Shown here: piece after piece, positions 1-56,733 of the stretch
Position numbering within the stretch: position 1 is the first letter of the stretch
Layout of the letters: every line of letters starts with the position of its first letter
DNA from: a virus
Strand: one strand, 5' to 3'
Virus record (IMG/VR): IMGVR_UViG_3300036832_000775
Location: 1-64,000 of that record
Length of the DNA: 64,000 bases
Made by a program: the position numbers and the translations under genes
The notes under the pieces: model-generated
What the model was told of the DNA's origin: nothing
Seen by the model: the letters and a program-made list of their open reading frames with translations, nothing else
Database searches by the model: none

Positions 1-27
1 GCGCATAAAAATTGTGTCCCGGCTCTC

Positions 28-42
28 TTGCACCATTTGCAA
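28..42. promoter_or_regulatory. Dispersed operator, copy 1 (TTGCA-N5-TGCAA)
   Basis: The sequence TTGCACCATTTGCAA is an exact 5+5 palindrome with a 5-bp centre. It lies about 120 bp upstream of the rightward gene that starts at 165. It belongs to the set of identical half-site pairs at 7393, 16389, 18045, 46948, 56719 and 63225. No clear -35/-10 pair could be assigned around this copy. Confidence 0.7.
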
Positions 43-6081: not shown

Positions 6082-6650
6082 GCCGCCCTCATCGGGTAGC
6101 GCGGCGGGATGATCTCGACGGCCTGCCGGAACATCATCTTGGAGATCGGCGGGGTTGCCCGCTTGTCATTGGCCAGGCAGGCGAACCACCAAAGCGCGCC
6201 CGCGTCGGCCTCGTCATCGTTCGCTGGGCTCCAGCCGAGCAACCGGCACATGGCGCGCGTGCGCCTCTTAGCGATGTCGCGCTTGAGCCTCCCATGGCCC
6301 AGGAAGCCCTTCCTGGCTGACGTGATCAGGACGTCATGCACGGGGACGCCCTTGAGCCTGGCGGCCGCTCCAAACAGCATATAAAGCCCGTTGAGCCGCA
6401 CGAGGGACGCCCTGGTCGTCTTGCCCGAGGAGCCCTCGAACGACAGGGGCTCCTCGATCCAGAGCTGGTCCGGACGCTCATCAGTCAGCCGGTGAGCGAT
6501 CCACCGCAAGGCGCGGGCACCCACTTCGAGATGGTTGTCCCCGCTATCCCCAAAGTTTACGGTCTCAAACCGTGGGACATCACCCGGCCGGCCGGAACAA
6601 ATACCCGTCTGCGTGGCCGCATCGACGGCCATGATGAGCGGCGCGGGCAT
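6078..6650 (-). CDS. RuvC-like Holliday junction resolvase
   Basis: A 190-aa RNase H-fold nuclease of the RuvC type. The first catalytic aspartate is in MAVDAATQTG near residue 9, the second acidic motif is DQLWIEEP near residue 62, and the C-terminal acidic pair is in NDDEADAGALWW near residue 145. That order of carboxylates is diagnostic of RuvC-like nucleases. The expected role is cleavage of branched DNA produced by the RecT/YqaJ recombination system or before packaging. It lies in the leftward early operon. Confidence 0.82.
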   Translation of the reverse strand: MPAPLIMAVDAATQTGICSGRPGDVPRFETVNFGDSGDNHLEVGARALRWIAHRLTDERPDQLWIEEPLSFEGSSGKTTRASLVRLNGLYMLFGAAARLKGVPVHDVLITSARKGFLGHGRLKRDIAKRRTRAMCRLLGWSPANDDEADAGALWWFACLANDKRATPPISKMMFRQAVEIIPPRYPMRAA

Positions 6651-6659
6651 GGCTGCCCG

Positions 6660-7109
6660 CTATTCTGCAGCGCGATCGTCAAATTCCTCGGGGGGCTCGG
6701 TCACGAGCTCCTCGATCGGGTCGCGGCGCTTGCGCTGCCGGCGGGGCTGCGCCTGGGCCTGCGCCTTGGCCTCATCCATCGCGGCTCTGCCGAGCGGACT
6801 ATCGGCGAACGTGCCGAGCTGGCTCTGCAGGCGATCGAGCGCGGTCTGCGTGACCTCGTCGAGCTCAGTCTCGAGCTCCTCCATTTTGCGCAGGAGCTCG
6901 CGTTGCTTGACCGAGACCTTCAACGCCTTTTTATCGAACCCCTTTGTTTTCACCGCCTCTTCGATCGTGTCGCGGATTGCTTCGTGCAGCGGCTTGCAGC
7001 GATTGGCGTAAAGCGCTTTTTCGGCCCGGAGATCCGCCATATAGCCTTCGACGGAGCGGACTACCTCTTCAGCTTCATCTTTGGTTGGGCCATTCGGGCG
7101 ATCGGTCAT
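6660..7109 (-). CDS. GapR-like (DUF2312-like) coiled-coil DNA-binding protein
   Basis: A 149-aa protein. Residues 20-100 are strongly helical and heptad-like (YMADLRAEKALYANR...KTKGFDKKALKVSVKQREL...EELETELDEV) and carry a G-F-D-x-K-A-L-K-x-x-V element as in GapR, the alphaproteobacterial nucleoid protein that binds overtwisted DNA. The C-terminal 45 residues are charged and disordered. Assignment to the GapR family is by pattern only. The gene overlaps the XRE gene by 4 bp and is the second gene of the early operon. Confidence 0.55.
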   Translation of the reverse strand: MTDRPNGPTKDEAEEVVRSVEGYMADLRAEKALYANRCKPLHEAIRDTIEEAVKTKGFDKKALKVSVKQRELLRKMEELETELDEVTQTALDRLQSQLGTFADSPLGRAAMDEAKAQAQAQPRRQRKRRDPIEELVTEPPEEFDDRAAE

Positions 7110-7333
7110 GCTGTCTCCTTCGTTTTTGGTTTTGACTGCGGGGAGACCGCAAACATTAGGTCTGAGATGTCGACCTCACCGCCGGTCGCTTCTATGATTT
7201 TCGTGAGGTTTTGGCGCTTGGGAATCGTGGTGCCGCTCAACAATCTGTAGATAGTTGTCGGGTGTACGCCAACCCGCGCCGCGAATTGCTCGGGGTTCAT
7301 TTCCTTCTTGGCGAGATACTCGCTTAGGCGCAT
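7106..7333 (-). CDS. XRE-family repressor-like HTH protein
   Basis: A 75-aa single-domain helix-turn-helix protein of the XRE (Cro/CI) type. The HTH is at about residues 14-45 (NPEQFAARVGVHPTTIYRLLSG), with the usual following helices. There is no dimerisation or self-cleavage domain, so it resembles Cro or a minimal repressor. It is the first gene of the leftward early operon. Two palindromes (7360-7374 and 7393-7407) lie just upstream, and one covers the -35 box of its own promoter. There is no Shine-Dalgarno before ATG 7333, and the predicted transcription start is only about 2 nt upstream, so the transcript is probably leaderless. Confidence 0.82.
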   Translation of the reverse strand: MRLSEYLAKKEMNPEQFAARVGVHPTTIYRLLSGTTIPKRQNLTKIIEATGGEVDISDLMFAVSPQSKPKTKETA

Positions 7334-7341
7334 GGGCGGCT

Positions 7342-7369
7342 ACCATAAACGGCGGCATCTTGCGGTCAA
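7342..7369 (-). promoter_or_regulatory. Leftward early promoter of the XRE gene
   Basis: On the minus strand a -35 box TTGACC (7369-7364) and a -10 box TATGGT (7347-7342) are separated by 16 bp. The predicted start, 6-7 nt downstream, falls at about 7335, next to ATG 7333. The palindrome at 7360-7374 overlaps the -35 box, so a protein bound there should block this promoter. Confidence 0.6.
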
Positions 7370-7374
7370 TGCAA
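7360..7374. promoter_or_regulatory. Operator copy 2 (one mismatch)
   Basis: TTGCGGTCAATGCAA has nine of the ten half-site bases of the consensus. It covers the -35 box of the leftward promoter. Its centre is 33 bp (about three helical turns) from copy 3, which would allow dimers on the two sites to contact each other. Confidence 0.65.
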
Positions 7375-7392
7375 ATTCCCCCTTGCCCGGAC

Positions 7393-7407
7393 TTGCACGA
7401 ACTGCAA
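7393..7407. promoter_or_regulatory. Operator copy 3 (exact)
   Basis: TTGCACGAACTGCAA is an exact copy of the 5+5 palindrome, placed on the side of the divergent region facing the rightward early operon. The rightward promoter itself could not be resolved. Confidence 0.75.
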
Positions 7408-7564: not shown

Positions 7565-7978
7565 ATGCGATATCGAGTTCAAGTTACGGTCGGAGCCGGC
7601 CATTTAACTGCCGTCATCGAGGCCTCCTGCAAAGACAATCCGGAGCCGGATCTTCGAGTCGAGCCTATCAATCAGCCAGCCCTGCCAGCCCCGCCGCGCC
7701 GGACGGCGGCGCTTATGCGTCCAGGCGCGGAGCCGAAGCCCAAGGCGCAAAGGCGATCTCCCTCCAGCTCTGGCGAGCGCCGGGAGGTCATCGAGAAGTC
7801 TCTGAGAACTGGACCGAAGCGCTGGAAGGAATTGAAGACCGCCCTCGAGGCCGCCAGCCTTTCACCGTGGACGCTCAACTCGCTGATCTCGACATGGCAG
7901 AAAGAGGGCAAGATTCGGCGCGGCCCCGAGGGGCTCTGGAGCCTGGTGGCGAAACATGACGAATCGGCGATTACCTGA
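7565..7978 (+). CDS. Winged-helix-like early protein
   Basis: A 137-aa protein starting at ATG 7565 (GGGAG upstream). The N-terminus is a short beta-rich segment (RYRVQVTVGAGHLTAVIEA) and the middle is Pro/Arg-rich and disordered. The C-terminal 55 residues (VIEKSLRTGPKRWKELKTAL...WTLNSLISTWQKEGKIRRGPEGLW) read as a winged-helix DNA-binding domain. It is the first gene of the rightward early operon, downstream of operator copy 3, so it may be a regulator of that operon. This last point is inference. Confidence 0.65.
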   Translation: MRYRVQVTVGAGHLTAVIEASCKDNPEPDLRVEPINQPALPAPPRRTAALMRPGAEPKPKAQRRSPSSSGERREVIEKSLRTGPKRWKELKTALEAASLSPWTLNSLISTWQKEGKIRRGPEGLWSLVAKHDESAIT

Positions 7979-8390
7979 ACGCTTCCTGACTGACTTCCCC
8001 GATCTTCCATGGCTCGGTCAGTACATTCTTGGCGGCGAGGAGGGGCACACGCCCATCCCCTGCTATTCGCTAACCGAATGGGGCCAGTTCATGGAAGGCG
8101 ACAAGCGGCTCGTCGCCCGCACCGGGAACGACACGAAGTGGGTTTCGACGGTGTTCTTGGGCCTCGATCATCACTTCTTGTGGGGCGGTCCGCCGCTCGT
8201 CTTCGAGACCATGGCGTTCATTAACGAAGGCCGGACCATCAAGCTGGGCGACAGCGAGATGCCCGTCGCCGAGCCTCTCGATCAGGCCCGCTATTCGTCA
8301 TGGGACGACGCCGAGATCGGCCACCAGGCGCTCGTGCGCAAATGGCTGATCAACGCCAAGACCCGTGTCGTGAGGGTCGATTCCGAATGA
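7956..8390 (+). CDS. Conserved phage hypothetical protein
   Basis: A 144-aa protein with the signature WVSTVFLGLDHHFLWGGPPLVFETMAF near the middle, which I recognise from many phage genomes as a conserved protein of unknown function. It overlaps the previous gene by 23 bp and the exonuclease by 4 bp. Confidence 0.75.
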   Translation: MTNRRLPERFLTDFPDLPWLGQYILGGEEGHTPIPCYSLTEWGQFMEGDKRLVARTGNDTKWVSTVFLGLDHHFLWGGPPLVFETMAFINEGRTIKLGDSEMPVAEPLDQARYSSWDDAEIGHQALVRKWLINAKTRVVRVDSE

Positions 8391-9328
8391 TCCATTCTTG
8401 GCCCATCACGAGCCGAGAGGAGTGGCTCGCGCGCCGACGTCGCAACGTCAACGCGAGCGAGGCCGCGGCGCTGTTCGGGCCGGAGATCCACCCGAGCCTC
8501 ACGCCCTACAAGCTCTGGGCGCTCAAGTGCGAGAAGATCGACGATCCGGAAGACAACCCGACGATGCGGCGCGGGCGCAAGTTTGAGCCGGTCGTCGTCG
8601 ACATCCTCCGCGAAGAGAACCCGACGTGGAAGATCGCAAGGTCTGGGGTTTATCTCTGGGATGACCAGACCCGCATCGGCTGCACCCCTGATGTAGATGG
8701 GACCCGGCCCGACGTTTATGGGGACGGCATCGTCCAAATAAAAACTGTCGGGCAGTTTGCTTTCCGGAAACGCTGGCATGACGAGGAGGGCAACATCGCG
8801 ATCCCAACCTGGGTCGCGGTGCAGGCCTCGATCGAAGCCTATCTGACCGGCTCGACCTGGGCCGGCGTCGCGGCGTTGAGACTCGGCGACGGGGGCATCG
8901 AGGTCCTCTACGTCGATATCCCCTTAAAACCGCATCTCATCCACGCGATCGAGGACCTGACCGCTGAGTTCTGGCGTAGGGTCGCCGACAACGACCCTTA
9001 CGACCCCGATTTCGGGCACGATCGAAAGCTCATCTTCGACCTCTTCGTCGAGGGCAAAGGGCCGATCGTCGACCTTAGCGACGACGTCGAGTTCGGGGAA
9101 ATTCTGCAGGAGCGGGCGCAGCTCAAGCAGGTCGAAAAGGCGGGGGAGTCCGCGACCACTCAGCGAAAGGTCCTTGACGCACGGATCATCAATAAGCTCG
9201 GCAACTCCCCCGCCGCCCGCAGCGGCGGCCGCCTGGTGACGATCAAAGTCGTCCGCAAAAAATCCTACCAGGTCAAGGCCACGCAATACCCGCTGGTCAC
9301 TGTCAAAGGAGTTGAAGATGCCGACTAA
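8387..9328 (+). CDS. YqaJ-type viral recombinase exonuclease
   Basis: A 313-aa PD-(D/E)xK exonuclease of the YqaJ/lambda-Exo family. N-terminal ITSREEWLARRRRNVNASEAAALFG is the typical entry motif of this family. RRGRKFEPVVVDILREE, then IGCTPDVDG and VQIKTV, supply the E, D and E-x-K-like catalytic elements at about residues 65-125, followed by the VAVQASIEAYLTG helix. The start ATG 8387 overlaps the upstream stop (ATGA). It degrades one DNA strand to load the annealase encoded next to it. Confidence 0.88.
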   Translation: MIHSWPITSREEWLARRRRNVNASEAAALFGPEIHPSLTPYKLWALKCEKIDDPEDNPTMRRGRKFEPVVVDILREENPTWKIARSGVYLWDDQTRIGCTPDVDGTRPDVYGDGIVQIKTVGQFAFRKRWHDEEGNIAIPTWVAVQASIEAYLTGSTWAGVAALRLGDGGIEVLYVDIPLKPHLIHAIEDLTAEFWRRVADNDPYDPDFGHDRKLIFDLFVEGKGPIVDLSDDVEFGEILQERAQLKQVEKAGESATTQRKVLDARIINKLGNSPAARSGGRLVTIKVVRKKSYQVKATQYPLVTVKGVEDAD

Positions 9329-10613
9329 CGGAGCCGGAGGTGCAGCTGGTTCATCGCTGACGATCGCGCAAGAGCTGGGGCAGCGGATGACCCAGTTCGA
9401 GGCCGCTTTGGCCGGGAGCGGAGTCTCGCCCAAGAAATTCGCGCGCGTCATCCTGACCGCAATCAACCTCAACCCCGATTTGCTCAACTGCGATCGACGC
9501 TCGCTCATGAACGCCGCCCTGAAGGCGGCCGCCGACGGGCTCGCGCCTGATGGGCATGACGGCGCGCTCGTGCCCTTCGAGGGCAAGGTGACCTGGATGC
9601 CGATGATCGCCGGGGTCCGAAAGAAGGTCCGGCGTAGCGGCGACGTCACCGCCTGGGACGTGACTGCCGTTTTCGCGAAGGACCATTTCGACTTTGAGCT
9701 CGGCGACAATCCCTGGATCAAGCACAAGCCCTGGATGCCTGGGCAGCTCGATCGCGGCGAGGAAGAGAGCGAGCCAGAATACCTCGCTCGCCTGCGTCGG
9801 CATGTCGACCATGGGCCGCTAACTCACGTTTATTCTGTCGCGATGATTAAGGGCGGCGACAAGTCCAGGGACGTCATGTCACGCGCCGAGGTCGAGCTGG
9901 TGCGCGACACGTATGCGCGGAAGAACCGCAAGGGCGAGTTCTCGCCGGCCTGGCGCAAGTCTTTCGCCGAGATGGCCAAAAAGACGGTCGCGCGCCGGCA
10001 CGCCAAGCAGCTCCCCATGTCTAGCGATATCCTCGGGTTGCTGACGCGCGACGATGAGCTATATGATTTGGAACGAGAGCGCGGCGAGCGCGTGCAAGCT
10101 CCCCGCGAGCTGAGTGCCCGACTAGACTTTCTCGCAGGAGTCGATCCTGAAACCGGCGAAATAGCGACTTCCGACGACGAGGTGATCGACTCCCTCGTCA
10201 AGGAACGCGCGGTCTCCGATGACGCCACTGGGGGTAGGATCCCAGCGGCCGAGGAGGCCGCGCAGCAATCTGGAGCCCCTCTCCCCGGGGGTTCCAGTGA
10301 GCGTGATGGGCCACTAGCAACGAACCCCGTCACGTCGGCACCCGAGCCGGATGATGTCTCGTCCGACTCGTCCGCGCCACCGGGAGCGGCGGATACCCCC
10401 TCGCAAGCTCCCGGTGGGTCGCCTCGGAAGGCCAAGGCGGCGACCCCCGACCTCCTGAGTCAGAATATCGCGCTGCGCGGCGACGAGATCGCTACGCAAG
10501 GCCGCCAGCAGCTAGAACGCTGGGTTAATGAATTGCCCCCGGACGAGATGGCGAAAATCTCGTTGGCGCAACTGAAAGCATGGCGCGGCGTCGCTGACAA
10601 GGTGGGCGTGTGA
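9318..10613 (+). CDS. recT: RecT-family single-strand annealing protein
   Basis: A 431-aa protein. Residues 15-240 match RecT: FARVILTAINLNPDLLNCDRRSLMNAALKAAADGLAPDGHDGALVPF, then VTWMPMIAGVRKKVRRSGDV and the PAWRKSFAEMAKKTVARRHAKQLP segment. The long C-terminal extension (about 270-390) is acidic, Ser/Pro-rich and probably disordered. ATG 9318 has AAGGAG six bases upstream and overlaps the exonuclease gene by 11 bp. The pair forms a Red-like recombination system. Confidence 0.9.
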   Translation: MPTNGAGGAAGSSLTIAQELGQRMTQFEAALAGSGVSPKKFARVILTAINLNPDLLNCDRRSLMNAALKAAADGLAPDGHDGALVPFEGKVTWMPMIAGVRKKVRRSGDVTAWDVTAVFAKDHFDFELGDNPWIKHKPWMPGQLDRGEEESEPEYLARLRRHVDHGPLTHVYSVAMIKGGDKSRDVMSRAEVELVRDTYARKNRKGEFSPAWRKSFAEMAKKTVARRHAKQLPMSSDILGLLTRDDELYDLERERGERVQAPRELSARLDFLAGVDPETGEIATSDDEVIDSLVKERAVSDDATGGRIPAAEEAAQQSGAPLPGGSSERDGPLATNPVTSAPEPDDVSSDSSAPPGAADTPSQAPGGSPRKAKAATPDLLSQNIALRGDEIATQGRQQLERWVNELPPDEMAKISLAQLKAWRGVADKVGV

Positions 10614-11021
10614 ATGGCCCAATTCGCCGCCCGCACAAGAGTTCCAATCGACAAGACCAAGGCCGATATCGAGCGCCTGGTGAAGCGTTACGGGGCCAAG
10701 GGCTTCGCCTCCGGCTGGCACAACGACGCCGCCCGAATCGAGTTCGTTTGCCACAACCGGCATATCCGCTTCACCGTCGTCGTCCCGCAAGGCGAACAGG
10801 CAGCGCGCCAAAAGTGGAGAGCCCTGCTTCTTTTGGTCAAGGCTAAGCTGGAAGCGGTCGACGCCAAGATCGCGAGCTTCGAGGAGGTCTTCGTCGGAGA
10901 GATCGTTATGCCGGGGACAGGCAAGACGATCTGGGAGACCGTGCGCGAGCCGATTCGCCTCAATTACGAGGGAAAGAAACCGACGCCGCTACTAGGATTC
11001 GAGCATGACCGGACCTCTTAA
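10614..11021 (+). CDS. Conserved phage protein of recombination operon
   Basis: A 135-aa protein of a family I recognise from many proteobacterial phages and prophages (MAQFAARTRVPIDKTKADIERLVKRYGAKGFASGW...WRALLLLVKAKLEAVDAKIASFEEVFVGEIVMPGTG). It usually sits near recombination or replication genes. No enzymatic motif is known to me. Confidence 0.75.
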   Translation: MAQFAARTRVPIDKTKADIERLVKRYGAKGFASGWHNDAARIEFVCHNRHIRFTVVVPQGEQAARQKWRALLLLVKAKLEAVDAKIASFEEVFVGEIVMPGTGKTIWETVREPIRLNYEGKKPTPLLGFEHDRTS

Positions 11022-11331
11022 ACTGCACCGCAGCTACAACTTCGTCGACAAGCATACCATCGTCGATGAGATCCGCACCGCCATTCAGGACAGTGGCGAG
11101 CCCGTCGAGTACATCGCCCACGCCGCTGGCGTCTCTCGGGCGACGATCGATTCCTGGCTCCACGGCAGGACCAAGAAGCCCTACTCGACCAGTCTCGAAG
11201 CGGTAGCGCGCGCTCTCGGGAAGCGCCTCACGCTGAGCGACAACGGCGATATGCAGCTCGTCGATGTCCCCCCTCCGCCGCCGGCCATTAAGAGCCGGCG
11301 ATTGTCCCTGGGCTGGAGACGCTACCAATGA
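11005..11331 (+). CDS. XRE-type helix-turn-helix protein
   Basis: A 108-aa protein. Residues 19-75 form an HTH domain (VEYIAHAAGVSRATIDSWLHGRTKKPYSTSLEAVARALGKRL), followed by a proline run and a basic tail. It is a second candidate regulator in the window, within the rightward early operon. It overlaps its neighbours by 17 and 4 bp. Confidence 0.72.
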   Translation: MTGPLKLHRSYNFVDKHTIVDEIRTAIQDSGEPVEYIAHAAGVSRATIDSWLHGRTKKPYSTSLEAVARALGKRLTLSDNGDMQLVDVPPPPPAIKSRRLSLGWRRYQ

Positions 11332-11543
11332 TGACGCGCGAAGAATTTCTCACGGACCTAAAGCAGCGCGCGCTCGAGATCGCGCGCGCCGGAGATCTGC
11401 AGCATGCGGTGAGCATGATGACGGTGGAGATCAACCGCCGCCATGACATGAAAGTCCATCACGCCTTTACGTTAGCCGGCACGATGCACGCAATGAACGA
11501 CGACCGGCCAAAGGTCATCGACTGGATCGAGTCGATGTCATGA
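11328..11543 (+). CDS. Small hypothetical protein
   Basis: A 71-aa helical protein (MMTREEFLTDLKQRALEIARAG...). It is coupled by ATGA overlaps to the HTH gene before it and the membrane protein gene after it. No known motif. Confidence 0.6.
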   Translation: MMTREEFLTDLKQRALEIARAGDLQHAVSMMTVEINRRHDMKVHHAFTLAGTMHAMNDDRPKVIDWIESMS

Positions 11544-11746
11544 TCGAGGACATCACACTCGCCTGCCAGCTTATCGTCCTGGCCATGCTCATCGGCATCA
11601 CCTGGTTCGGTTGGCAGACGCGCAAAAACGTTCAGAAAACGGCTGATCTGATCACGCAATACAGGAGGGAAGTCGAATGGCTGGGAGCAAGAATCGACAT
11701 GCTGGAGCGATCAAGGCAATCGCAGAAAATGACCTCATCCAAGTGA
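11540..11746 (+). CDS. Small single-pass membrane protein
   Basis: A 68-aa protein with one transmembrane helix at about residues 6-25 (LACQLIVLAMLIGITWFGW), followed by a cytoplasmic-looking amphipathic coiled-coil tail (QKTADLITQYRREVEWLGARIDMLERS). It overlaps the next gene by 70 bp. Function unknown. The layout of one N-terminal helix plus coiled coil resembles small phage inner-membrane accessory proteins, but no specific assignment is justified. Confidence 0.6.
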   Translation: MIEDITLACQLIVLAMLIGITWFGWQTRKNVQKTADLITQYRREVEWLGARIDMLERSRQSQKMTSSK

Positions 11747-11955
11747 ACGAAGACGGGCCGCCGAACTGGTTCCGCTGTGTGCTTGCGGTCGATGAGGTGA
11801 AGAGCTGGGGCGTCCAGGCCTATTGCACGATTCCGCGAGCGCAAGGCGAGGCGTCAGGTGACGCCTACATGCGGCTCAGTTGGGGTGAGTTCGACGAGCT
11901 CGGCGTCAAGTCGAAGTTCGTCGCGGTCGAGGACTTCCGGGTGAACCCGGATTAA
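11677..11955 (+). CDS. Hypothetical protein
   Basis: A 92-aa basic-then-acidic protein (MAGSKNRHAGAIKAIAENDLIQVNEDGPPNWFRCVLAVDEVKSWGVQAYC...) that looks like a small beta-rich fold. The start sits 70 bp inside the previous gene but has AGGAGGGAAG-like sequence upstream. Function unknown. Confidence 0.6.
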   Translation: MAGSKNRHAGAIKAIAENDLIQVNEDGPPNWFRCVLAVDEVKSWGVQAYCTIPRAQGEASGDAYMRLSWGEFDELGVKSKFVAVEDFRVNPD

Positions 11956-11968
11956 GGAGGAGGAAAGC

Positions 11969-12424
11969 ATGGCGCTAACACCAGCTGCATTACTTGCGTT
12001 CGTTTCGACTGTGTTCATGGCTCGATCCCTGGGCGGGGACCCGCCGATCGAGCTGCCGCCGGAGCCCAAGCCGGAGCCGCTGCCGGAGCCCAAGCCCCAG
12101 GAGGTGAAGGAACCGGAGCCCGAGGAGGACCCCGCTGCGCGCCACCAGCGCATCAGCAGGGAGATCGCCTTGCGCCTCGTGAGGGAGAATGTCGATTTGC
12201 GCGAACAGCTGATCTGGGAGCGGCACATGCGCGCCCAGCTCGAAGTGGAGCTCGCGCGGCGCAGCCAGCAGCTCGCCGCCCAGCAAGCGCCCATCCCCCT
12301 CGTGATGCCATCCGACGCCCAGCGCCAGCTGCTGGGAGCGCAAGTGCAATTTGGTTTCTGCACGTGCGTTCCCGGCCGCGCCGACGCGCTGCGTGGCCCG
12401 CAGCCTCATCGGATCGTTGGATGA
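11969..12424 (+). CDS. Membrane-anchored proline-rich coiled-coil protein
   Basis: A 151-aa protein preceded by a strong AAGGAGGAGG. It has an N-terminal hydrophobic anchor (TPAALLAFVSTVFMA), a PEPKPEPLPEPKP-type repeat at about residues 28-48, and then an acidic/basic coiled coil (RISREIALRLVRENVDLREQLIWERHMRAQLEVELARRSQQL). The layout is TonB-like or spanin-like: an inner-membrane anchor plus an extended periplasmic arm. Neither identity can be proved from the sequence. Confidence 0.6.
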   Translation: MALTPAALLAFVSTVFMARSLGGDPPIELPPEPKPEPLPEPKPQEVKEPEPEEDPAARHQRISREIALRLVRENVDLREQLIWERHMRAQLEVELARRSQQLAAQQAPIPLVMPSDAQRQLLGAQVQFGFCTCVPGRADALRGPQPHRIVG

Positions 12425-12624
12425 CCAAGTGCATCTGCGGCGAGGAGCACGAGCGTCACCCCGTCCCTCTGCTGAGCATGGGGCTCTCGACGACCGACGA
12501 AGTGGTCAGCGTCGAGCCCTTCACGGCCGAGGACGGGCGCCGCGCTTGGCGCTGCGTCATGGCTGACGGCGTCAGGGAGATCGTTGTCGAGCTCCGCGAG
12601 GCTCCGGCTAAGGGGGACGCTTAA
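12421..12624 (+). CDS. Small hypothetical protein
   Basis: A 67-aa protein beginning MTKCICGEEHERHPVPLL. Its ATG overlaps the previous stop (ATGA). A Cys/His cluster (C4, C6, H10, H12) could bind metal, and the remainder is a beta-rich segment (RRAWRCVMADGVREIVVEL). Function unknown. Confidence 0.6.
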   Translation: MTKCICGEEHERHPVPLLSMGLSTTDEVVSVEPFTAEDGRRAWRCVMADGVREIVVELREAPAKGDA

Positions 12625-12625
12625 A

Positions 12626-12898
12626 GTGCCGAAGCTTTGTCCCAGTTGCGGGCTCACGAAGCCTCTAACCGAGTTCAATATCCGCATACGTGATTTTGAG
12701 TTGATCCCGAGATGTCGAGCGTGCTGCGCCTCAGTTCATGCAGAGTGGCGTGCCGACAATCGTGAAGGCCTGCTTGAATACAACCGCGCCTACAATAAGA
12801 CGCGCCCGAAGCGATCTATCCCAAGAGAAAAGGCGACTGCAGCTCAACGAAGATGGCGAGCAAAGCGGCGGGCTCTCCTGCTGGGAACTCCGCTATGA
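12626..12898 (+). CDS. Zinc-finger protein, endonuclease VII-like N-terminal module
   Basis: A 90-aa protein starting at GTG 12626, with AGGGGG upstream. CPSCGLTKPLTEFN and CRACCASVHAEWRADNREGLLEYNRAYNKTRPKR match the treble-clef module that often precedes the nuclease domain in phage endonuclease VII-like proteins. The nuclease part is absent here, so it is either a stand-alone DNA-binding zinc protein or a remnant. Confidence 0.6.
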   Translation: MPKLCPSCGLTKPLTEFNIRIRDFELIPRCRACCASVHAEWRADNREGLLEYNRAYNKTRPKRSIPREKATAAQRRWRAKRRALLLGTPL

Positions 12899-13428
12899 AG
12901 CGCGAATGTGGAGACTGCCAGCTCTGCTGCAAATTGCTCCCCGTAAAAGGGATCAACAAGCCGGCGCTCACCCGCTGCCCGCATCAGCGCCACCACAAGG
13001 GGTGCGCCGTCTACCATAAGCCCGAGAAAGGCTTTCCATGGGAGTGCGGCCTATGGAATTGCGCCTGGCTGCAGAACATTGACGCGGCGGAGCTGCGCCG
13101 CCCGGATCGATCCAACTACGTGATCGATGTCATGCCCGATTACCTCACGGCAGAGGGCGCCGATGGACAGAACATCGTGCTCCCCGCCGTCCAGATCTGG
13201 GCCGATCCAAAATACCCTGACTGTCACCGGGACCCCGAGCTGCGGGCATGGCTCGTGCGCCGCCGGGGCTTTGTGGGGCTCGTCCGCTACGGGGCCTACG
13301 ACGCCATCACGCTTATCCCGCCGTACATGATGGAGAACGGCGAGTGGCTTGAGAAGCGCAACGGCAATGTGCTTGAGAAGACGCATTCGTTCGGCCAGGT
13401 CCTCGAAGCCTTGAGCACTGTCGGATGA
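12895..13428 (+). CDS. YkgJ-type cysteine-cluster protein
   Basis: A 177-aa protein starting at ATG 12895, which overlaps the previous stop. The N-terminus CGDCQLCCKLLPV...CPHQRHHKGCAVY...WECGLWNCAW has the eight-cysteine pattern of the YkgJ (zinc/iron-chelating) family. The remaining 120 residues are less conserved in look. A metal-binding role is expected, but the biological function in phages is unknown. Confidence 0.7.
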   Translation: MKRECGDCQLCCKLLPVKGINKPALTRCPHQRHHKGCAVYHKPEKGFPWECGLWNCAWLQNIDAAELRRPDRSNYVIDVMPDYLTAEGADGQNIVLPAVQIWADPKYPDCHRDPELRAWLVRRRGFVGLVRYGAYDAITLIPPYMMENGEWLEKRNGNVLEKTHSFGQVLEALSTVG

Positions 13429-13724
13429 AGCGCGCCGCCATCGCTGTGATCGCCATCACATTGGCGCTCGAGCCGGCCGCCGCGGCGAAATGCCATCATT
13501 TCAGCATTTGGAAATATCCCTGGCGGCAGAGCTGCCGGATGACCGCGCTCGCGCCGTCCTCGATACGCTCTCGGGCCAGGATCAACGTCATCCTGCCGGT
13601 GCCACGGCCTATTGAAATCCCCCTCCCCGATCTCACGAACATCGACTGGGGCCAGCTCCCCGACGATGACGCGCGCGGCAGGCTGATGCTGCGCGCAACT
13701 CTCCAAGGAAAGGAAGACAAATGA
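13425..13724 (+). CDS. Small exported protein
   Basis: A 99-aa protein with a clear Sec signal peptide (MKRAAIAVIAITLALEPAAAA, probable cleavage after AAA) followed by a basic, Cys-containing mature part. The mature protein is predicted to be periplasmic. ATGA coupled to the previous gene. Function unknown. Confidence 0.65.
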   Translation: MKRAAIAVIAITLALEPAAAAKCHHFSIWKYPWRQSCRMTALAPSSIRSRARINVILPVPRPIEIPLPDLTNIDWGQLPDDDARGRLMLRATLQGKEDK

Positions 13725-14062
13725 GTGACGAAGCCCACCACACGGAGCCCCTAACCGTCGGTCACGGACGCCACGATTATTCCACCGCAGCGACCTTCAA
13801 CGAGCCAACGCAGCTCCGGCGCATGATCAGCGCGATCCCACCGAAGGTGGAAGAGATCCCTCACGACGCCGACGCCGAGATCGCCGCCGCGGCGACAGCT
13901 GCAGCGAATCACCGCTCCGAGGCCCGCCGTGACGCCGTCCTGGCGGTTGCGCTGGCTATCGCGCGGCGCGGTCAGAGCCCCGTCTCAGACTGGACGACGC
14001 GAGACACGGATACGGCTTACGCGATAGCCGACCAGCTCATCGCCCTGGGGCAAACTACCTAG
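13721..14062 (+). CDS. Hypothetical protein, last gene of rightward operon
   Basis: A 113-aa Ala-rich helical protein (HYDSTA...EIAAAATAAANHRSEARRDAVLAVALAIARRG). No motif recognised. It ends 20 bp before the operator-like box and the hairpin array at 14.1 kb. Confidence 0.6.
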   Translation: MSDEAHHTEPLTVGHGRHDYSTAATFNEPTQLRRMISAIPPKVEEIPHDADAEIAAAATAAANHRSEARRDAVLAVALAIARRGQSPVSDWTTRDTDTAYAIADQLIALGQTT

Positions 14063-14082
14063 CACGCCATGCAAAACAAAAC

Positions 14083-14111
14083 GTGCAAATAGGGCAAAAC
14101 CGTTCTATGAT
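14083..14111 (+). promoter_or_regulatory. Promoter with degraded operator, candidate RNA gene
   Basis: GTGCAAATAGGGCAA (14083-14097) is the reverse complement of TTGCCCTATTTGCAC, a degraded operator with two half-site mismatches but the same centre as copy 9. It overlaps a possible -35 GTGCAA (14083-14088), followed after 17 bp by a good -10 TATGAT (14106-14111). The predicted transcript would start at about 14117. No coding sequence follows, only a hairpin array. Confidence 0.5.
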
Positions 14112-14116
14112 TAACG

Positions 14117-14256
14117 GCGTTCGGCTGAGTAGCGCCGGACGCGACGGCTGGCTCGAGCCCACACTCTAGCCAGCCAGCCCTGCGATGACCGAACGTGGGG
14201 CGAAGGAGAGGGGCCGGCTTCTGAAACGCGCCTCGTTATTGGGGTCGGCCTCTCTC
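14117..14256 (+). ncRNA. Candidate structured RNA, three hairpins
   Basis: Three stem-loops follow each other with short linkers. Stem 1 is 9 bp (14117-14125 with 14134-14142, one G-U). Stem 2 is 8 bp (14146-14153 with 14168-14175). Stem 3 is 13 bp (14206-14218 with 14244-14256, two G-U), with an inner AACG/CGTT pair in its 25-nt loop. The first stem begins at the start predicted from the upstream TATGAT box. The segment lies between convergent operons and has no credible reading frame. The third hairpin could alternatively act only as a bidirectional terminator. I recognise no known RNA family. Confidence 0.45.
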
Positions 14257-14297
14257 TGAATCACCCTACCACAGATCATCGCGTCGCGCCGCAGCGT

Positions 14298-14790: not shown

Positions 14791-15588
14791 TTAGTAGAGG
14801 GCGAGGCGCGCGCGAGCGCGTCGGCCAGCGAAGCCAAGGAAGACGAAACCGAGGAGCATCATTGCCCAAGTGCTCGCCTCCGGCACGGGTGGCCCGCTCA
14901 ACTGATTTACGAAGCCCGCGTTCGTCCATGCGGTGTCAAAGGTGGTCACGTCAAGCTTGCCGTTGTTGCCGATTGAAACATCCACAGCTATCGGCGCGAT
15001 GACAGTGCCCAGGCCAAACGAGCCGTTGAGCGTCAGGAAGTCCGCGTCGCTGTTGAAGCCCACCGGGATCACCGCATCCTCGATTTGGAACGTCGTCGGC
15101 GCAGTCAACCCTGCAGCCGCGTAGGCGAGGAGGATGTTGGAGAAGCTCACCGATGCATCGGCTCCCGGCAAGTTGAACGCCTTGCCGACATCCTGCCCCG
15201 CCGAGAGCGTGACCACTGGACCGTCAAACAGACCGTTCGTCTGGTCGAAGGCCGTCGCCGCCACCGTCGTCTGCGGGCCGAGCGAGAATGCGCCTGCAGA
15301 GCCGACGCCGGTCGCGCTCGTGATGGTCGGCAAGGGCGACCCGAGCGGCTCAAGGAGGAGCACGCGGATCGGCTGGTTGATGGTGTGATTGCCGACCTCG
15401 GTGATCGTCAGCGTATTGCTGTCGTTCAGGAGCACCGGATCGGAGCCGGTCGCGGTGGGCGAGCTGACATGGAACGACGCCGGGTCGCAGAACGTATTGC
15501 CCGCGGCGTCGGTAGTGCAAGCGGTCTGCGCGTGAGCCGCGCCAGCCGCCACGAGGATCGTGGCGGCGAGAAGTGTCTGTCTGAGCAC
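14791..15588 (-). CDS. PEP-CTERM exported protein 1
   Basis: A 265-aa protein. The Sec signal peptide is MLRQTLLAATILVAAGAAHA. The mature part is Thr/Ser/Asn-rich and beta-like with one early Cys pair. The C-terminal 30 residues form a PEP-CTERM sorting signal: VPEASTWAMMLLGF, a hydrophobic helix, then GRRARAR. In PEP-CTERM bacteria such proteins are exported and processed by exosortase with exopolysaccharide production. Finding one in a phage late block is unusual and points to host-derived cargo. A second such gene lies 9 bp upstream. Confidence 0.82.
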   Translation of the reverse strand: MLRQTLLAATILVAAGAAHAQTACTTDAAGNTFCDPASFHVSSPTATGSDPVLLNDSNTLTITEVGNHTINQPIRVLLLEPLGSPLPTITSATGVGSAGAFSLGPQTTVAATAFDQTNGLFDGPVVTLSAGQDVGKAFNLPGADASVSFSNILLAYAAAGLTAPTTFQIEDAVIPVGFNSDADFLTLNGSFGLGTVIAPIAVDVSIGNNGKLDVTTFDTAWTNAGFVNQLSGPPVPEASTWAMMLLGFVFLGFAGRRARARLALY

Positions 15589-15597
15589 TGGAGCCTC

Positions 15598-16323
15598 CTA
15601 ATCGGCCAAACGCGGAGCGCGCTGCCGGCTGCGGAAGACCCCAAACAGGCCCAGCAACCCGAACCCTGCCATCAGCATCGCCCAAGTGGAGGCTTCCGGA
15701 ACGCCCGTCTCCATGGCTTGATTAAAGCCAGTTATGCTACCCCCGGTTGTGAGCGCGAGCGATGCACTCTCAGTCATACTAAACGGCGCGAGCGCAGAGA
15801 ACGCCGCGATGTTCGAGCCCGCGAAGCTGTCGGGGTTGGTCGTCGGCGTACCAGAGACCGTCTCCAATAAGCTGCCGGGGGTGTTCAGCGGATTCGCGCC
15901 CTGCGTATTGAGCGGGTCGGCCCAGAACGAGAGCGAGCTTGGCCCCGACCCAACCGCGTTGTTGAAGGTCAGCGAACCGCTGTCGCGGACGAAGGTGACC
16001 GGCGCGGCGAAACCAGTGTCGCCAGCGACCAAGCTGATGGTGATCGGCGCTCCCGACAGGTTCTCGATGTTGGAGCTCGAAAGCTGAAGCTCGTTAGGCG
16101 CGCCGAACGAACTCTGGGCCAGCGTCAGCTGGACGAACGCCCCGCCGACGCTCTGATCAATGGTTAGGAGGTTGTTCGCGCCGCCGCTGACGTCGCAGGA
16201 AAGCTGGCCGTCGAAGCAACTGAACGTGCTCCCGTTCGCGGAGATCGAGAGCTGCAGCCGCGCATAGGCAGGCGAGGCCGCAATCGCAGACAGAATCGCA
16301 GTGGTCACAAGAAGTTTGCGCAT
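15598..16323 (-). CDS. PEP-CTERM exported protein 2
   Basis: A 241-aa protein with a signal peptide (MRKLLVTTAILSAIAASPAYA) and a C-terminal PEP-CTERM signal (VPEASTWAMLMAGFGLLGLFG followed by RSRQR). The mature domain is beta-rich (LTIDQSVGGAFVQLTLAQSSFG...) and differs from protein 1, so the pair is not a simple tandem duplication. It is the first gene of a two-gene unit. An exact operator copy lies 66 bp upstream, at 16389-16403. Role in the phage unknown; surface modification of the lysogen is a reasonable hypothesis. Confidence 0.82.
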   Translation of the reverse strand: MRKLLVTTAILSAIAASPAYARLQLSISANGSTFSCFDGQLSCDVSGGANNLLTIDQSVGGAFVQLTLAQSSFGAPNELQLSSSNIENLSGAPITISLVAGDTGFAAPVTFVRDSGSLTFNNAVGSGPSSLSFWADPLNTQGANPLNTPGSLLETVSGTPTTNPDSFAGSNIAAFSALAPFSMTESASLALTTGGSITGFNQAMETGVPEASTWAMLMAGFGLLGLFGVFRSRQRAPRLAD

Positions 16324-16388: not shown

Positions 16389-16403
16389 TTGCACGCAATG
16401 CAA
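16389..16403. promoter_or_regulatory. Operator copy 5 (exact), upstream of PEP-CTERM pair
   Basis: TTGCACGCAATGCAA lies in the 89-bp gap between the stop of the membrane protein gene (16413) and the start of PEP-CTERM protein 2 (16323). It is the only copy placed between two genes of the same direction, which suggests the PEP-CTERM pair has its own regulated promoter. Confidence 0.72.
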
Positions 16404-18044: not shown

Positions 18045-18059
18045 TTGCAAATCGTGCAA
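18045..18059. promoter_or_regulatory. Operator copy 6 (exact)
   Basis: TTGCAAATCGTGCAA lies in the 60-bp divergent region between the leftward collar gene (start 18037) and the rightward membrane protein gene (start 18098). A possible rightward promoter is TTGCAA (18045-18050) with TATGTG (18067-18072) at 16 bp spacing, so the palindrome would cover the -35 box. Confidence 0.75.
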
Positions 18060-18097
18060 ATTGAACTATGTGGAGGTGTCCTACAGGAGTCGAACCC

Positions 18098-20484: not shown

Positions 20485-23400
20485 TCACTGCTTAACCGGG
20501 CTGCCGTCATAGTTGAACGCCTTGCCCGTCGTCTTGTTTGTCCAAACTCCAGTCTGATTGTCGTAGGTGTATTTCCCGCTAGGCAGCCCGGGCGGCCGGA
20601 CGCCCGAGCGAGCTTTCCGCAGAGAGACGGCATCGTCGATCTTGTTGTCCTTGACGAACTGATCGTCGTAGTCGCCCAGGCTGAGCGTAGTCGGGCGCTG
20701 GCCCTCCTTGGCGTGTCGCCACTTCATGTAGCCCTGGCCGTATTTGTCTTGGTAATCGAGGACGCCAAGCGCCTGCGCCAGGATGGCGCGGTTCGCCTCC
20801 GGCTCCAGCTCGGCGCTGGGCGAGGCCTGCTTGTAGGACGTGATCTCGGCGACGCGCGGGGTTCCCGGCATGGCCTTGACGGCGTCCATAATCATGGCCG
20901 TCGAGTTCTTGACGTACTCCTGGTAGCTGGAGGCCGTGCTCGGATCCAAGCCGACAGCGCCCGGGTTGAAGCCGGCCGCCTTGATGTAGCGGACGACATC
21001 AGCCTTCCAGTCTGCGCCAGCTCCCGGCTTGTAGCCGCTGTCGAGGAGCCCGATGAGCGCTTCCGCGCGCTGCGCGAGGACCGGCCGGCTGCGGAGCCCC
21101 TGGCGCACGTCGGCATCCTGTTCGGACGTCGCCTTGACGTCGGCCTCTGTCCCCGCCTCCAGGCCTTTCTTGATGCCGGCCGTCCTCGCTTCCCAGGACG
21201 CCTTCGCGGCCGCGATCATCGCGTTGCCTTGATCGATGTAGGAATTGCCGGCCGTGCCGCCGCCAATGTTCATGGCGCCGCCAAGCTTGATCCGCCGCAT
21301 CCCCTCTATGTAATCCGGGTCGGTTGTGTAAGTGCCGATGTCGGCCCCAGACGTGCCGGCCCCGGTCCTATCCCCAGCTCCTCCCGCGACCTTCGTCGGC
21401 GGAGCTCCGCCCCCACCCGTTCCAGATTGCCCCGCGCCGCCCGTAGGAGCCCCGCTGGCGCCCGTTCCCCCTCCCAGGGTAGGAATAGACGGGAGAGGAC
21501 CAACGCCCGTCCCTGAGCCTCCTGTGCTCCCTGTAGAGCCGTCGCCGACGTCGATGCCCGCATCACGGAAGGCCGCGATCTGGATTTTGGCCATGCGCTG
21601 CGCGATCTGGGTCTGGATGACCTTGAAATCGGCGTCCGCGCCATGCTCGCGCGCCTCGGCCGACAGATTGGCGATCTGCGCCTGATTGTAGTTCCAGTCC
21701 TTCTCCAGGCCCTGCATCTGGCCGAGGTACTTGTTCCCGGCCGCGAAGCCCTCGCCCATCTGTGTGCCGAGCCAGGGCGAGCGAGACGCCATCATCCCTG
21801 CGCCGACCGTCATCATGTAGCCGAACGGGTCGCGCTTCAGCTCATCGCCCAAGGTCGGAGGATGGCTCGGCTGCCCGCCGCCAGGAGGAATAGCAAACCC
21901 GCCGCCGTAGCCTTCCGTAGTGGCCACGGCAGGCTGCGCGCCAGCGCTTGGGACATCGGCGCCCCCGCCCGCGACCGAGACCGGCGAGGCCTTGCCAGAG
22001 CTCAGATAGGCCTGGGCGTACTTGTCGCCCTTCCACGGCGCGAGATTGACCCCCTTGCCATGGCTATACATCTGGTCGATCGCGAACTTGCCGACGCCCT
22101 GCCATTGGTTCGGGTCAGTCGGATCGTAGCCCGCCTTGCGCGCCTGATCCCCGAGCGCGCCAGGATGGATGTTCATCTGAAAATCGCCGAACGAGAACGG
22201 CTTGCCTCCCTCGACATCGACGGTCGATCCGCCGACGCCAGGAGCGTACAGCCCCTCGGCCTTCGCGACGCCGAGCGCGATGTTTGGATCGGCGCCGGGA
22301 TAGGTCTTGGTGATGTAATCGCGATACCAGGCGGCTCGCTGCGCAGGAGTCGTCGCTCTCCGATCAGACGGGACGCCGCCGCCTCCGCCTCCGCCGCCGC
22401 CTCCGCCTCCGCCTCCGCCTCCGCCCCCTCCGCTCGGAGCTGGGGCCGGCGCGGGCGCGGGCGCGGCCCCCGCAAACGGGTCTAACGCCTCTTCGATCGC
22501 CGCGTCGCCGCCCTCTTGAAAGTTACCGCGCAGGGAGCCAAGCCCTACGCCACCTCCAGTCGCGAAACCTGTATCAAGGTTGAAAGTGTCGTCAGGGAGA
22601 GCTGCGAAATCTCCCGACAGATCAGCGCCGCTGACGATATCGCTCGCCCCGCCGCCTCCGACGTCCCCGGCGCCTCCATCCGATCCCGTCGGCGTCGTCT
22701 GCGCCCCGCTCCGGTCCTTGAAGCCCGTCAGGACGGCGCCGGCCTGCTTCATCAGATCGCCAGGACTCCCCGGCTGAGCGCCGCTCTGGGGCTCTGGCGC
22801 TTTAGGCGCCTGGGCCTGCGGCGGACCTGGCCCCAGTCTGCCGCTGCTGCCGGACGAGGCCTCGATCGCCGCCAGGAACGGATCGATCGAACCGCCCCCC
22901 TCCGCAAAGCCCATACGGCCGCCGCCGCCGAACAGATCGCCGAACCCGCTCGCGGCCTTCGAGGTCGCGAAGGATCCGAGGCCTTCGCCCTGTGAGGTCT
23001 GGCCGGACATGCCGAAGCCCTGCGGCGTATAGCCGCCAGTGTTCTCGAGAGGCGAGGAGCCCATGACGCCGCCGCCGCCCTGGAAGTTAACCGGCCCACC
23101 AGAAGCCCGAACGGGAGCGCCGAGATAATCCTCACGCGGCGGGACCCAGCTCCCGTAATCGGTGTTCGGCGTCGGCCAGGAGCCATGGTTGCCAACGATG
23201 TCGGCGTAGTTGCTGAGATTGACGCGGCCTGGCCCGCCGGCTGGGTGAGCTCCTCTAGTCCGCGCGATATGCCGCGCCGCAGCAATCGCTGGGTGAACAG
23301 GCGCTTGAGCTCGAGCGTTCGGGCTGACCCCCGCGGCGACCGCGTCGCCAGGAACGTAGGTTGAGCCGCGCGCATTGCCGGTCGTTGGCACGAAGTGGCC

Positions 23401-33359: not shown

Positions 33360-36300
33360 CGGCCCGCCTCCAACGCCGCGATACGCGCCGTCAGGTCAGC
33401 ATTCTGCGCCGCCAGCGTCTTGACCGCGTTGACGAGCGCGTAGGTCAGCGCCGAAGCGTCCAGCCCGAGAAGGTCCGGCACATCGGTCTTGATCCGGCCT
33501 TTTTTGTTGTCGTGATCAATCGAGTGCAGTTCGGCTTCGCAGAGCATTTCCGGCATGATCGGTTGCACGTCTTGCGCCGTCAGTCCGTAATAGGTCTTGC
33601 CGTTGTCGGGCGTGCCGCCCCTGCCGTTGTACTGGTAGGCGACCGGGCGCAAGGCGCAGACCTGATCGAGGCCCGCCGAATAATCCTTGACGTTCTTCTT
33701 CACCCGAATATCCGACTGCGTCGCCCAGACGCCGCCGCCCGGTTTGTAGCCGTTGCCAGAGACGAGGCCAAAGTTGCCGGGGTAGTCGAGCGTCACGGTA
33801 TTGGCATTGTTGCCGTACCAATAGAGAACGCCACTGTTCCGGTCTAATTGTAGCGAATAGGCGGTTCCCCATGAGAGGGTGCGCACGCCACCGCTGATAT
33901 TCATGTAGAAGGAGGCGTCGACGTTGTAGGCGAAATAGGTCGGGCCGGTCGCTACGACGAGCGCGCCCCCGACATTAGTGTTGCCGGTCGACTGGACGCC
34001 CGCCCCGACAATCGTCCCGCTCATGGAGATGCCGGTCCCGTTGAGTTGTCCGCTCAACGTCCCTCCCACCAGCTGGAGGTAGGCCGAGTTGCCGTAGGTG
34101 CGAACCCAATAGGTATTTGCGACTGCCGCCGAATTGTCGGTGTTCGACGGACTTGGCACAAGCGGGACGCCGGAGAAGTTTGGGCTCGCCAGTGGGGCGC
34201 GTGAGGTGTCGGTCGGATGAACGTGGTCGTTGCGCGCGAACATTGCGCCGACGCCAACCGCCGCCGTTCCGTCCATCAATGGGGTTGTGCTTGAGGCGAC
34301 CGGCAATTGCTGCAACGTCACTGGGTTCAGGTTCGCAGTCGCATTGCCTTTGAGAACGAGGTCGCCGGTCAACGTTCCGCCCGCTAAAGGTAGGAACGGA
34401 GCCGCGTTCATCTGCTGCAACGTCACCGGATTGAGCGCCGCCACAGCGTTGCCCTTGAGCACGATGTCGCCCGTGAGGGTCCCGCCGCTCAAAGGCAGAT
34501 AGCCGCTCGTAAGCTGCTGCAACGGCACTGGATTGAGTGCCGCCGTCGCGTTGCCCTTGAGCACGATGTCGCCGTTCATCGTCCCGCCGCTCAAAGGCAG
34601 GAAATTGCCGCCGGAATTGTTAGCGATCACCCACTGACTTGAGTTGGCATCTTGATACCAGAGGTAGGTCTGGCCTCCGACGGAATCGAACCAGAGGTCC
34701 CCCGGTTTCGGATTTGTCGGAGCGATGTCGCTGATGGTCACGCTCGCGCCGATCGCCGCTTGCCACGAAGCATCCGAGCCGCGCCGCGCATAGAGCGCAC
34801 CGTCGGTCGGCGCCTCGGGCACGGGACCAGGCGGCCCGGTGTTCCCGATCGGACCCTGCGGGCCTGCCGGCCCGGTCGCGCCGTTTGGCCCCGTCGGTCC
34901 TGCCGGCCCGGTGCTCCCGGTGGATCCGGTCGGACCTGGCACGCCCTGCGGCCCAGGATCGCCCTTCAGACCTTGCGGTCCAGTAATGCCAGATGGCCCT
35001 TGCGGCCCTGCCGGCCCTGCCGGACCGTCGTTGCCGAGAGGCCCTACCGGACCCTGGATGCCCTGCGGGCCAGGCGTGCCCTGCGAACCCTGCGGACCAG
35101 GCGGCCCGGTGTTCCCGATCGGTCCTTGCGGGCCTGCACCTCCGCCGGTTCCCTGGGGGCCTGCCGGCCCCTGGGGGCCTACCGAACCAGCTGCGCCGTC
35201 CTGGCCAGGAACGCCCTGGATCCCCTGCGGACCAGGCGGCCCGACGACATTGCCGAGGCTCGTCCAACCCGCAGGCGTGATTGATGTCCCGACGTAGTCC
35301 CAGATCGAGCTGTCGACGGTGTAGACCATCGCTTGCCCGGGCTGCATCTGGATGGCTGTCGGGGGATTCCCGGCCGAGTCCCAATTGATCGGGATGAGAC
35401 CGGACGGGGGCAGCGTGGAGGGCGCGTTGTGCGTGAACGATCCGACGATGATCGCGGTCTGCCCAGGCGGCCCAGGATTGCCCTGGGAGCCCTGTGGGCC
35501 GGATGTACCGGGGTCCCCCTGTATACCCTGCACGCCCTGGATACCCTGGTCTCCTGGGGCTCCCGGGGTCCCCTGGGGGCCGGCTGGGCCGATGATCCCT
35601 TGAGCTCCGGTCGCGCCGCCTGGCCCCTGGGCTCCGGTTGAGCCGCCCGGGCCTGCCGGCCCCTGCGGACCAGGCGGACCCTGCGAACCCTGCTGGCCAG
35701 GCGGACCCTGCGTCGCGCCCCCGATATCGATCCACCCGGGCGCGGTGTATTGCGTGCCGACGAAGTCCCAGACTGAGTTGCTCGGCGTATAGATGAGCGC
35801 CTGCCCGGGCTTCATCTGCAGATCGGCCGGCGGATTCCCCGGAGCATCCCAGTTCGCGGGGAGCAACCCGCTCGGCGGCAACGTCGAAGGGTTATGATTC
35901 GCGAAGCTGCCGACGACGATCGCGGTCTGCCCCGCGGCTCCCGTGATGCCTGGCGGCCCCTCGGGGCCTGCCGGCCCCTGGACTCCCTGCTGACCGGGGA
36001 TGCCTTGAGGACCCTGGGGGCCGACCGGCCCCTGTGGGCCTGACGGACCAGGAATCCCTGCGAGCTGCGTCCAGATCGGGTCGTTCCCGGCTCCCTGGCT
36101 TTGCAAGAAACTGCCGGAGACGCCGACGCCCGACCAGCGCGGCGGATCGCCGCCGACGAGCACCGCGCCAGGCGGGTTGGGATAGATCGCGCCGAACTGC
36201 GTCGGTCCAGCATAGAGGAGGCCGAACTCCGGATAGAATCCCCCTCCCGTGCCGCCATCATCCACCGAGATCGGCGTCGGCACTCGGATGTATTCGACGA

Positions 36301-46920: not shown

Positions 46921-46962
46921 TTGCATTTCGTGGGAAGAGATCTATATTTGCAGTTCGTGCAA
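46921..46962. promoter_or_regulatory. Operator copies 7 and 8 and rightward promoter
   Basis: TTGCATTTCGTGGGA (46921-46935, two mismatches) and TTGCAGTTCGTGCAA (46948-46962, exact) lie 27 bp apart, centre to centre, in a divergent region. TTGCAT (46921-46926) and TATATT (46943-46948) at 16 bp spacing form a good rightward promoter. The exact palindrome starts at the last base of the -10 box, a position where binding would block transcription start. Confidence 0.75.
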
Positions 46963-46975
46963 ATAGGAGTCGATG

Positions 46976-56599: not shown

Positions 56600-56718
56600 A
56601 GGAATCCTCCGCAGAAAGCGGGCGGCCCCATCCGCTTCCGGCTGGGGGGCAAAAAAGAAACATCGGAGCCGCCCGGGCGGGGGATCTAACCACCCCGCCG
56701 ATTGCAGCCTACCCCGAT

Positions 56719-56733
56719 TTGCACTATTTGCAA
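56719..56733. promoter_or_regulatory. Operator copy 9 (exact)
   Basis: TTGCACTATTTGCAA lies 22 bp before the GTG start at 56756. A possible promoter has -35 TTGCAG (56702-56707) and -10 TATTTG (56725-56730) at 17 bp, which would place the operator over the -10 box. A degraded half site (TTGCAG) lies 17 bp upstream. Confidence 0.75.

What the first reader, a model, noticed from the sequence alone, without database searches (positions are those of the whole stretch)
14083..14256. Candidate structured small RNA between convergent operons
A TATGAT box and an operator-like -35 region are followed, at the predicted start, by three consecutive stems of 9, 8 and 13 bp within 140 nt and no reading frame. 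A simple terminator would need only one stem. The RNA would be under the same control as the other regulon members. It could be an antisense or protein-binding RNA of the phage.
Basis: partly seen in the sequence, partly recalled or inferred. Interest (0 to 1): 0.68.

Follow-up and report, generated by a model that had tools for sequence, protein, structure and literature searches.

The report
Conserved phage small RNA, target unknown
Between two converging gene blocks, this soil phage and nearly every relative we could check carry a small structured RNA with its own promoter and one hairpin loop, CCCACA, that never changes; it is a real new RNA family, probably a regulator, but what it acts on is not known.

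Summary
A syntenic segment occurs in 13 of 14 related phage contigs covering this spot (with the window, 10 distinct sequences, 40-58% identical to the window). A covariance model built without the window finds the window copy and two other divergent copies as its next-best matches. Sixteen of 30 base pairs change on both sides; G-U cells outnumber A-C 25 to 4, so the + strand is the RNA. H1 has the invariant hexaloop CCCACA in all ten. A promoter with 17-base spacing precedes it, next to an operator (TTGCA-N5-TGCAA) that recurs across these genomes. No shared reading frame, no Rfam family. Best reading: a phage regulatory small RNA, transcribed alone, ending in a terminator-like hairpin whose loop in most relatives (not in the window) is an anti-Shine-Dalgarno sequence. 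Target and expression are undemonstrated: loop complementarity to phage gene starts is no better than chance. It is confined to one clade of phages, probably of Bradyrhizobium-like hosts.

The parts
14060..14074 (+). operator-like palindrome TAGCACGCCATGCAA (one mismatch to TTGCA-N5-TGCAA), overlapping the stop codon of the upstream gene
   Evidence: the family of sites is 7 in the window against 0.15 expected
14083..14088 (+). -35 element GTGCAA (operator half-site)
   Evidence: TGCA invariant in 10 aligned members, alignment A6
14106..14111 (+). -10 element TATGAT, 17-base spacer to the -35, inside an inverted repeat CCGTT/AACGG
   Evidence: TA invariant in 10 aligned members; sequence
14117..14142 (+). 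H0, window-specific 9-bp hairpin at the predicted 5' end
   Evidence: has no counterpart in relatives
14146..14175 (+). H1 hairpin with invariant hexaloop CCCACA (loop 14158-14163)
   Evidence: 6 of 9 pairs with changes on both sides; loop identical in 10/10
14177..14201 (+). H2 hairpin, C-rich 5' arm, G-rich 3' arm
   Evidence: 3 of 7 pairs with changes on both sides, 86.6% of cells paired
14205..14257 (+). H3, long GC-rich 3' hairpin; terminator-like in relatives (followed by T run there), weak T run in the window
   Evidence: 7 of 14 pairs with changes on both sides, 94.9% of cells paired; sequences
14117..14263 (+). predicted small RNA as a whole (start and end inferred, not mapped)
   Evidence: R1 hit 14140-14261, model made without the window
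7106..7333 (-). Cro/CI-type repressor, likely reader of the operator (inferred); operator copies lie upstream of it at about 7360-7407
   Evidence: HTH_3, PHROG transcriptional repressors; 79-87% identical in relatives; sites

Best explanation
The segment encodes a phage small non-coding RNA of about 140 nt, transcribed rightward from its own operator-linked promoter and ending at hairpin H3. Shown by sequence: conserved promoter, conserved and covarying three-hairpin fold on the + strand, invariant CCCACA loop in H1, conserved position between the converging operons. Inferred: it is expressed when the phage repressor lets go, and acts in trans by base pairing, with the exposed CCCACA loop (and in most relatives the UUUACCUCCUACGG loop of H3, an anti-Shine-Dalgarno sequence) as contact sites, most likely on host RNAs, since phage gene starts show no excess complementarity. 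H3 doubles as transcription terminator in the relatives that keep a T run.
For: Fold z -5.1 on + against -1.8 on -; + strand more structured than - in 10/10 members. Model R1, built from seven relatives only, finds the window (24 bits, E 8e-4 in 232 kb), L009 and L015 as next-best hits, all at the syntenic place. Alignment A3: 92.9% of cells paired against 42-59% for slid structures; 16/30 pairs with changes on both sides, 38 such cells against 12.7 in shuffles (0/500); covariation score 0.401 against 0.195. G-U 25 cells, A-C 4. CCCACA 10/10, and the stem-loop is single-copy per genome. Promoter elements TGCA/TA invariant. Different genes are inserted between the upstream gene and the promoter in L015, L005 and L002, yet promoter plus RNA stay together. 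H3 loop of the main group is complementary to ribosome-binding sites: 30 matches against 2.5 expected from coding regions (host contig) and 39 against 3.3 (phages). Rhizobial sRNAs with conserved anti-SD loops on variable stems are an established precedent (PMC10746234; PMC3927594).
Against: No transcript data. The window's own H3 loop is not anti-SD (35 against 31.5), so that seed is not general. The complement of the H1 loop, TGTGGG, is not enriched at gene starts of the phages or of one Bradyrhizobium contig, and duplex energies to phage gene starts equal those of shuffled loops. Complement sites conserved in phage genes are explained by conserved codons. The window's T run after H3 is poor. 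Hfq binding was not tested.
Confidence: 0.5

Rival explanations
1. The RNA works through a protein: the CCCACA hexaloop on a variable stem is a binding site for, or decoy of, a host or phage RNA-binding protein.
For: Loop sequence invariant while the stem, including the closing pair (U-A or G-C), varies, as is common for protein-recognised hairpin loops; no RNA target found.
Against: I know of no protein with this loop as its site; the site is single-copy, so it is not a dispersed antitermination or operator hairpin. The conserved anti-SD loop in H3 of the main group points to base pairing.
Confidence: 0.25
2. It is an elaborate terminator and insulator between the converging early and late operons, with no function in trans.
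For: It lies between converging operons in all ten members; one distant relative without that convergence, L040, lacks it. H3 with T run is a good intrinsic terminator in the main group, and similar GC-rich hairpins occur beside host genes.
Against: A terminator needs neither its own conserved promoter, nor two further covarying hairpins, nor an invariant loop. The window, L015 and L009 lack a good T run after H3. The - strand has no T run after the stem. L040 is otherwise unlike this phage (no TerL or RecT match), so its lack of the RNA is weak evidence.
Confidence: 0.17
3. The element acts as DNA, for example as a replication origin or packaging site whose hairpins form in single strands.
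For: Hairpins and a promoter also mark some phage origins; single copy per genome.
Against: G-U cells exceed A-C cells 25 to 4 and the + strand folds better in 10/10, which a DNA element would not need; no GC-skew turning point specific to this place.
Confidence: 0.04
4. A small protein is encoded.
For: Reading frames of 24-31 codons exist in some members.
Against: They are not shared; L005, L003, L008 and L009 have none over 3 codons; close relatives differ by single-base indels inside.
Confidence: 0.02

Closest known systems
alpha-r14 family sRNAs of rhizobia (NfeR1 and kin)
   Same: Three hairpins with variable stems and conserved unpaired loop motifs; anti-Shine-Dalgarno seed in the main phage group (PMC10746234)
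   Different: NfeR1 carries the identical CCUCCUCCC motif in all three hairpins; here H1 is CCCACA, H2 is C-rich and variable, and the window copy has no anti-SD loop. No Rfam match.
Phage-encoded small regulatory RNAs of enteric phages (reviewed in PMC12197685; anti-sRNAs of EHEC prophages, PMC4104026)
   Same: Small non-coding RNA in a phage genome
   Different: No sequence relation; those act in enteric hosts; the target here is unknown
RNA anti-CRISPRs (Racrs, PMC10651486)
   Same: Small phage RNA from its own promoter; a repeat-like unit sits just behind this RNA in two sister phages
   Different: This RNA itself is not a CRISPR repeat mimic; the repeat-like unit is separate and absent from the window
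Intrinsic (Rho-independent) terminators
   Same: H3 with T run in main-group relatives
   Different: Two or three further conserved hairpins, an invariant loop and a promoter

Membership tests
Described RNA families (Rfam 15) | Score at or above the family's gathering threshold | tested here: not met
   No match in the window or in 7 relatives; only a chance miRNA hit at E 1.9
alpha-r14 / NfeR1 anti-SD sRNAs | CCUCCUCCC motif in the loops of three hairpins | tested here: not met
   Loops are CCCACA, C-rich variable, and UUUACCUCCUACGG or unrelated
alpha-r14 / NfeR1 anti-SD sRNAs | Silences mRNAs by pairing at the ribosome-binding site | not testable with these tools
   H3 loop of the main group is SD-complementary; no experiment
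Conserved structured non-coding RNA (as a class) | Compensatory base-pair changes on one strand | tested here: met
   strand by G-U against A-C
Conserved structured non-coding RNA (as a class) | Discrete transcript | not testable with these tools
   no transcriptome available
Conserved structured non-coding RNA (as a class) | No conserved reading frame | tested here: met
Intrinsic terminator | GC-rich hairpin directly followed by a T run | tested here: inconclusive
   Met in seven main-group members, poor in window, L015, L009; not among the scanner's sites in the window
RNA anti-CRISPR (Racr) | Sequence and fold of a CRISPR repeat | tested here: not met
   Only the type I-C repeat was sought by pattern; absent from the window. 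Other repeat types were judged by eye only.
Member of the phage repressor regulon | Operator TTGCA-N5-TGCAA at the promoter | tested here: met
   One-mismatch copy in window and G005, perfect copy in L015/G004; other members keep only the half-site; binding untested

The most novel reading that the evidence does not exclude
The invariant CCCACA loop is a dedicated contact with one specific, unchanging host molecule (a host RNA or an RNA-binding protein), making this a phage riboregulator or RNA-based counter-defence of a kind not yet described; the type I-C CRISPR-repeat-like unit directly behind it in two sister phages would fit an RNA-based anti-host locus.
Probability: 0.15. Interest if true: 0.8.

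Novelty: new member of a known kind. Interest (0 to 1): 0.55.

Why it matters
Structured RNAs of phages outside a few model hosts are hardly charted. This one comes with a promoter, an operator, ten divergent sequences, a covariance model and a single invariant six-base loop, so its target can be sought directly. If the loop contacts a conserved host molecule, it would reveal a handle that these soil phages use on their rhizobia-like hosts.

Tried and rejected
Rfam at gathering and at E 10: nothing meaningful. DNA similarity to isolate phages: only chance matches. Weak R2 hits in 4 of 150 host-family genomes: two (L110, L113) are GC-rich hairpins beside a tRNA-like segment, sharing only H3-like shape; one (L111) is a low-complexity hairpin; none is syntenic. 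R2 hits of 14.5 bits beside TerL in two fragments: judged chance. Phage mRNA targets by duplex energy at all gene starts: no better than shuffled loops. Kissing-loop partner hairpins with UGUGGG: only the RNA's own complement and chance cases. Conserved UGUGGG sites: explained by codons such as Leu-Trp-Gly and Met-Trp-Ala. Prophage relatives in Bradyrhizobium-type genomes share an upstream gene, not the RNA. Pattern hits L032 and L035-L037 were coding-region coincidences.

Full report
What is there. The finding lies in G000, a 72,948-base phage contig. Rightward genes 7565-14062 (RecE-like exonuclease, RecT annealing protein and small genes) meet leftward genes, structural ones among them, that end at 14298. 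In the gap, the + strand carries GTGCAA-17-TATGAT and then four hairpins, H0 to H3, ending at 14257. The fold is far more stable than shuffled sequence on the + strand (z -5.1, 0/200) and only mildly so on the - strand (z -1.8).

Relatives. The genes 12853-13428 and 13721-14062 led to overlapping sets of 17, 4 and 14 loci. Just after the homologue of 13721-14062, or after one inserted gene, comes the same arrangement: AAAACARAACGTGCAAA, a -10 box, a hairpin with CCCACA loop, a C/G hairpin, and a long GC-rich hairpin with a T run. Thirteen of fourteen contigs covering the site carry it (with the window, ten distinct sequences). The fourteenth, L040, has no such RNA, its downstream genes run in the same direction, and it belongs to a different phage, without a TerL or RecT match. 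Searches of whole virus records found members only at this site, besides reverse-strand echoes of H3 and weak single hits. The pre-filter of that tool lost the window and L015 copies with R1, which direct searches found, so those negatives are not exhaustive.

Independent homology test. Model R1 was built from seven main-group sequences. Searching 232 kb, its next hits after its own members were L009 (26.1 bits), L015 (25.1) and the window (24.0, E 8e-4), each at the syntenic place. The window RNA is only 40-58% identical to the others, so structure and the loop carry the match.

Covariation. On alignment A3 of ten sequences, 92.9% of cells are standard pairs (slid structures 42-59%), 16 of 30 pairs have changes on both sides, and the covariation score is 0.401 against 0.195 in shuffles, 0/500 reaching it. 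Related sequences can beat shuffles without structure, as the tool warns, but the slid controls keep relatedness and fall to 0.04-0.14. G-U cells number 25 and A-C cells 4, so selection acts on the + strand transcript; the + strand folds better than the - strand in all ten. The loop CCCACA is identical in ten of ten while its closing pair is U-A or G-C.

Control. The -35 TGCA and -10 TA are invariant in the alignment, and the 17-base spacer is the same in the main group and the window. The phages share an operator TTGCA-N5-TGCAA: seven near-matches of a longer form in the window against 0.15 expected, many in front of genes in the relatives, and a Cro/CI-type protein 79-87% identical between them. 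L015 has a perfect copy over its -35; the window has a one-mismatch copy at 14060-14074 plus a half-site as -35. That the Cro-like protein binds these sites is inference.

Coding. The longest frames (24-31 codons) are not shared, four members have none over 3 codons, and close relatives differ by single-base indels.

Function. H3 with T run is a terminator in the main group; the window's T run is poor. In the main group the H3 loop UUUACCUCCUACGG is invariant and strongly complementary to ribosome-binding sites, the design known from rhizobial anti-SD sRNAs (PMC10746234, PMC3927594). The window and L009 lack this loop; L015 has a partial one. The one feature common to all is CCCACA. Its complement is not enriched at gene starts, duplexes with phage gene starts are no better than with shuffled loops, and conserved complement sites in phage genes are codon-driven. 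A phage mRNA target is therefore unsupported; a host RNA or a protein remains. I commit to a trans-acting base-pairing RNA (about 0.5) over a protein-binding RNA (0.25) and a pure terminator (0.17). That it is a conserved structured RNA at all I hold at about 0.95.

Host and range. Relatives of the upstream gene occur in Bradyrhizobium and other Rhizobiales genomes, so a Bradyrhizobium-like host is likely but unproven. No isolate phage in the collection is close: the best TerL match is 43% identical, and the upstream gene has none. The RNA was not found in 150 genomes of the family of Bradyrhizobium sp. SRL28 apart from weak, non-syntenic hits.

Novelty. A new RNA family of a known kind (phage-encoded small RNA), without Rfam match. 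Nothing in the papers searched describes it, but that library is partial.

Noticed in passing
L008:6361-6391 and L013 about 6541-6570 (sister phages G002, G003): GTCGCCCCGCAGAAGGGGCGTGGATCGAAAC, a solitary unit very like type I-C CRISPR repeats (an array-like set in a Rhizobiales genome reads GTCGCCTCCGCACGGAGGCGTGGATTGAAAC every 66-68 bases), lies directly behind the RNA terminator: a candidate RNA anti-CRISPR. Absent from the window and the other relatives.
   Followed up: partly
window 26-42, 7360-7407, 14060-14074, 16389-16403, 18045-18061, 46948-46964, 56717-56733, 63223-63239: Shared operator TTGCA-N5-TGCAA in front of genes, conserved across the related phages; probably read by the Cro-like protein 7106-7333.
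   Followed up: partly
window 14791-15588 and 15598-16323 (-): Two genes whose products end in VPEASTWAM...; the first matches PEP-CTERM in Pfam. Such sorting tags seem unusual in phage genes; relative L040 has them too.
   Followed up: no
starts of genes in G000-G005 and G007: Many phage genes share the ribosome-binding site GGAGTCGA (6-14 genes per genome, none in the unrelated G006).
   Followed up: no
window 34824-36050 and 22376-22449: Long runs of short in-frame repeats, multiples of 9 bases, in large structural genes; the first looks collagen-like (Gly-X-Y).
   Followed up: no
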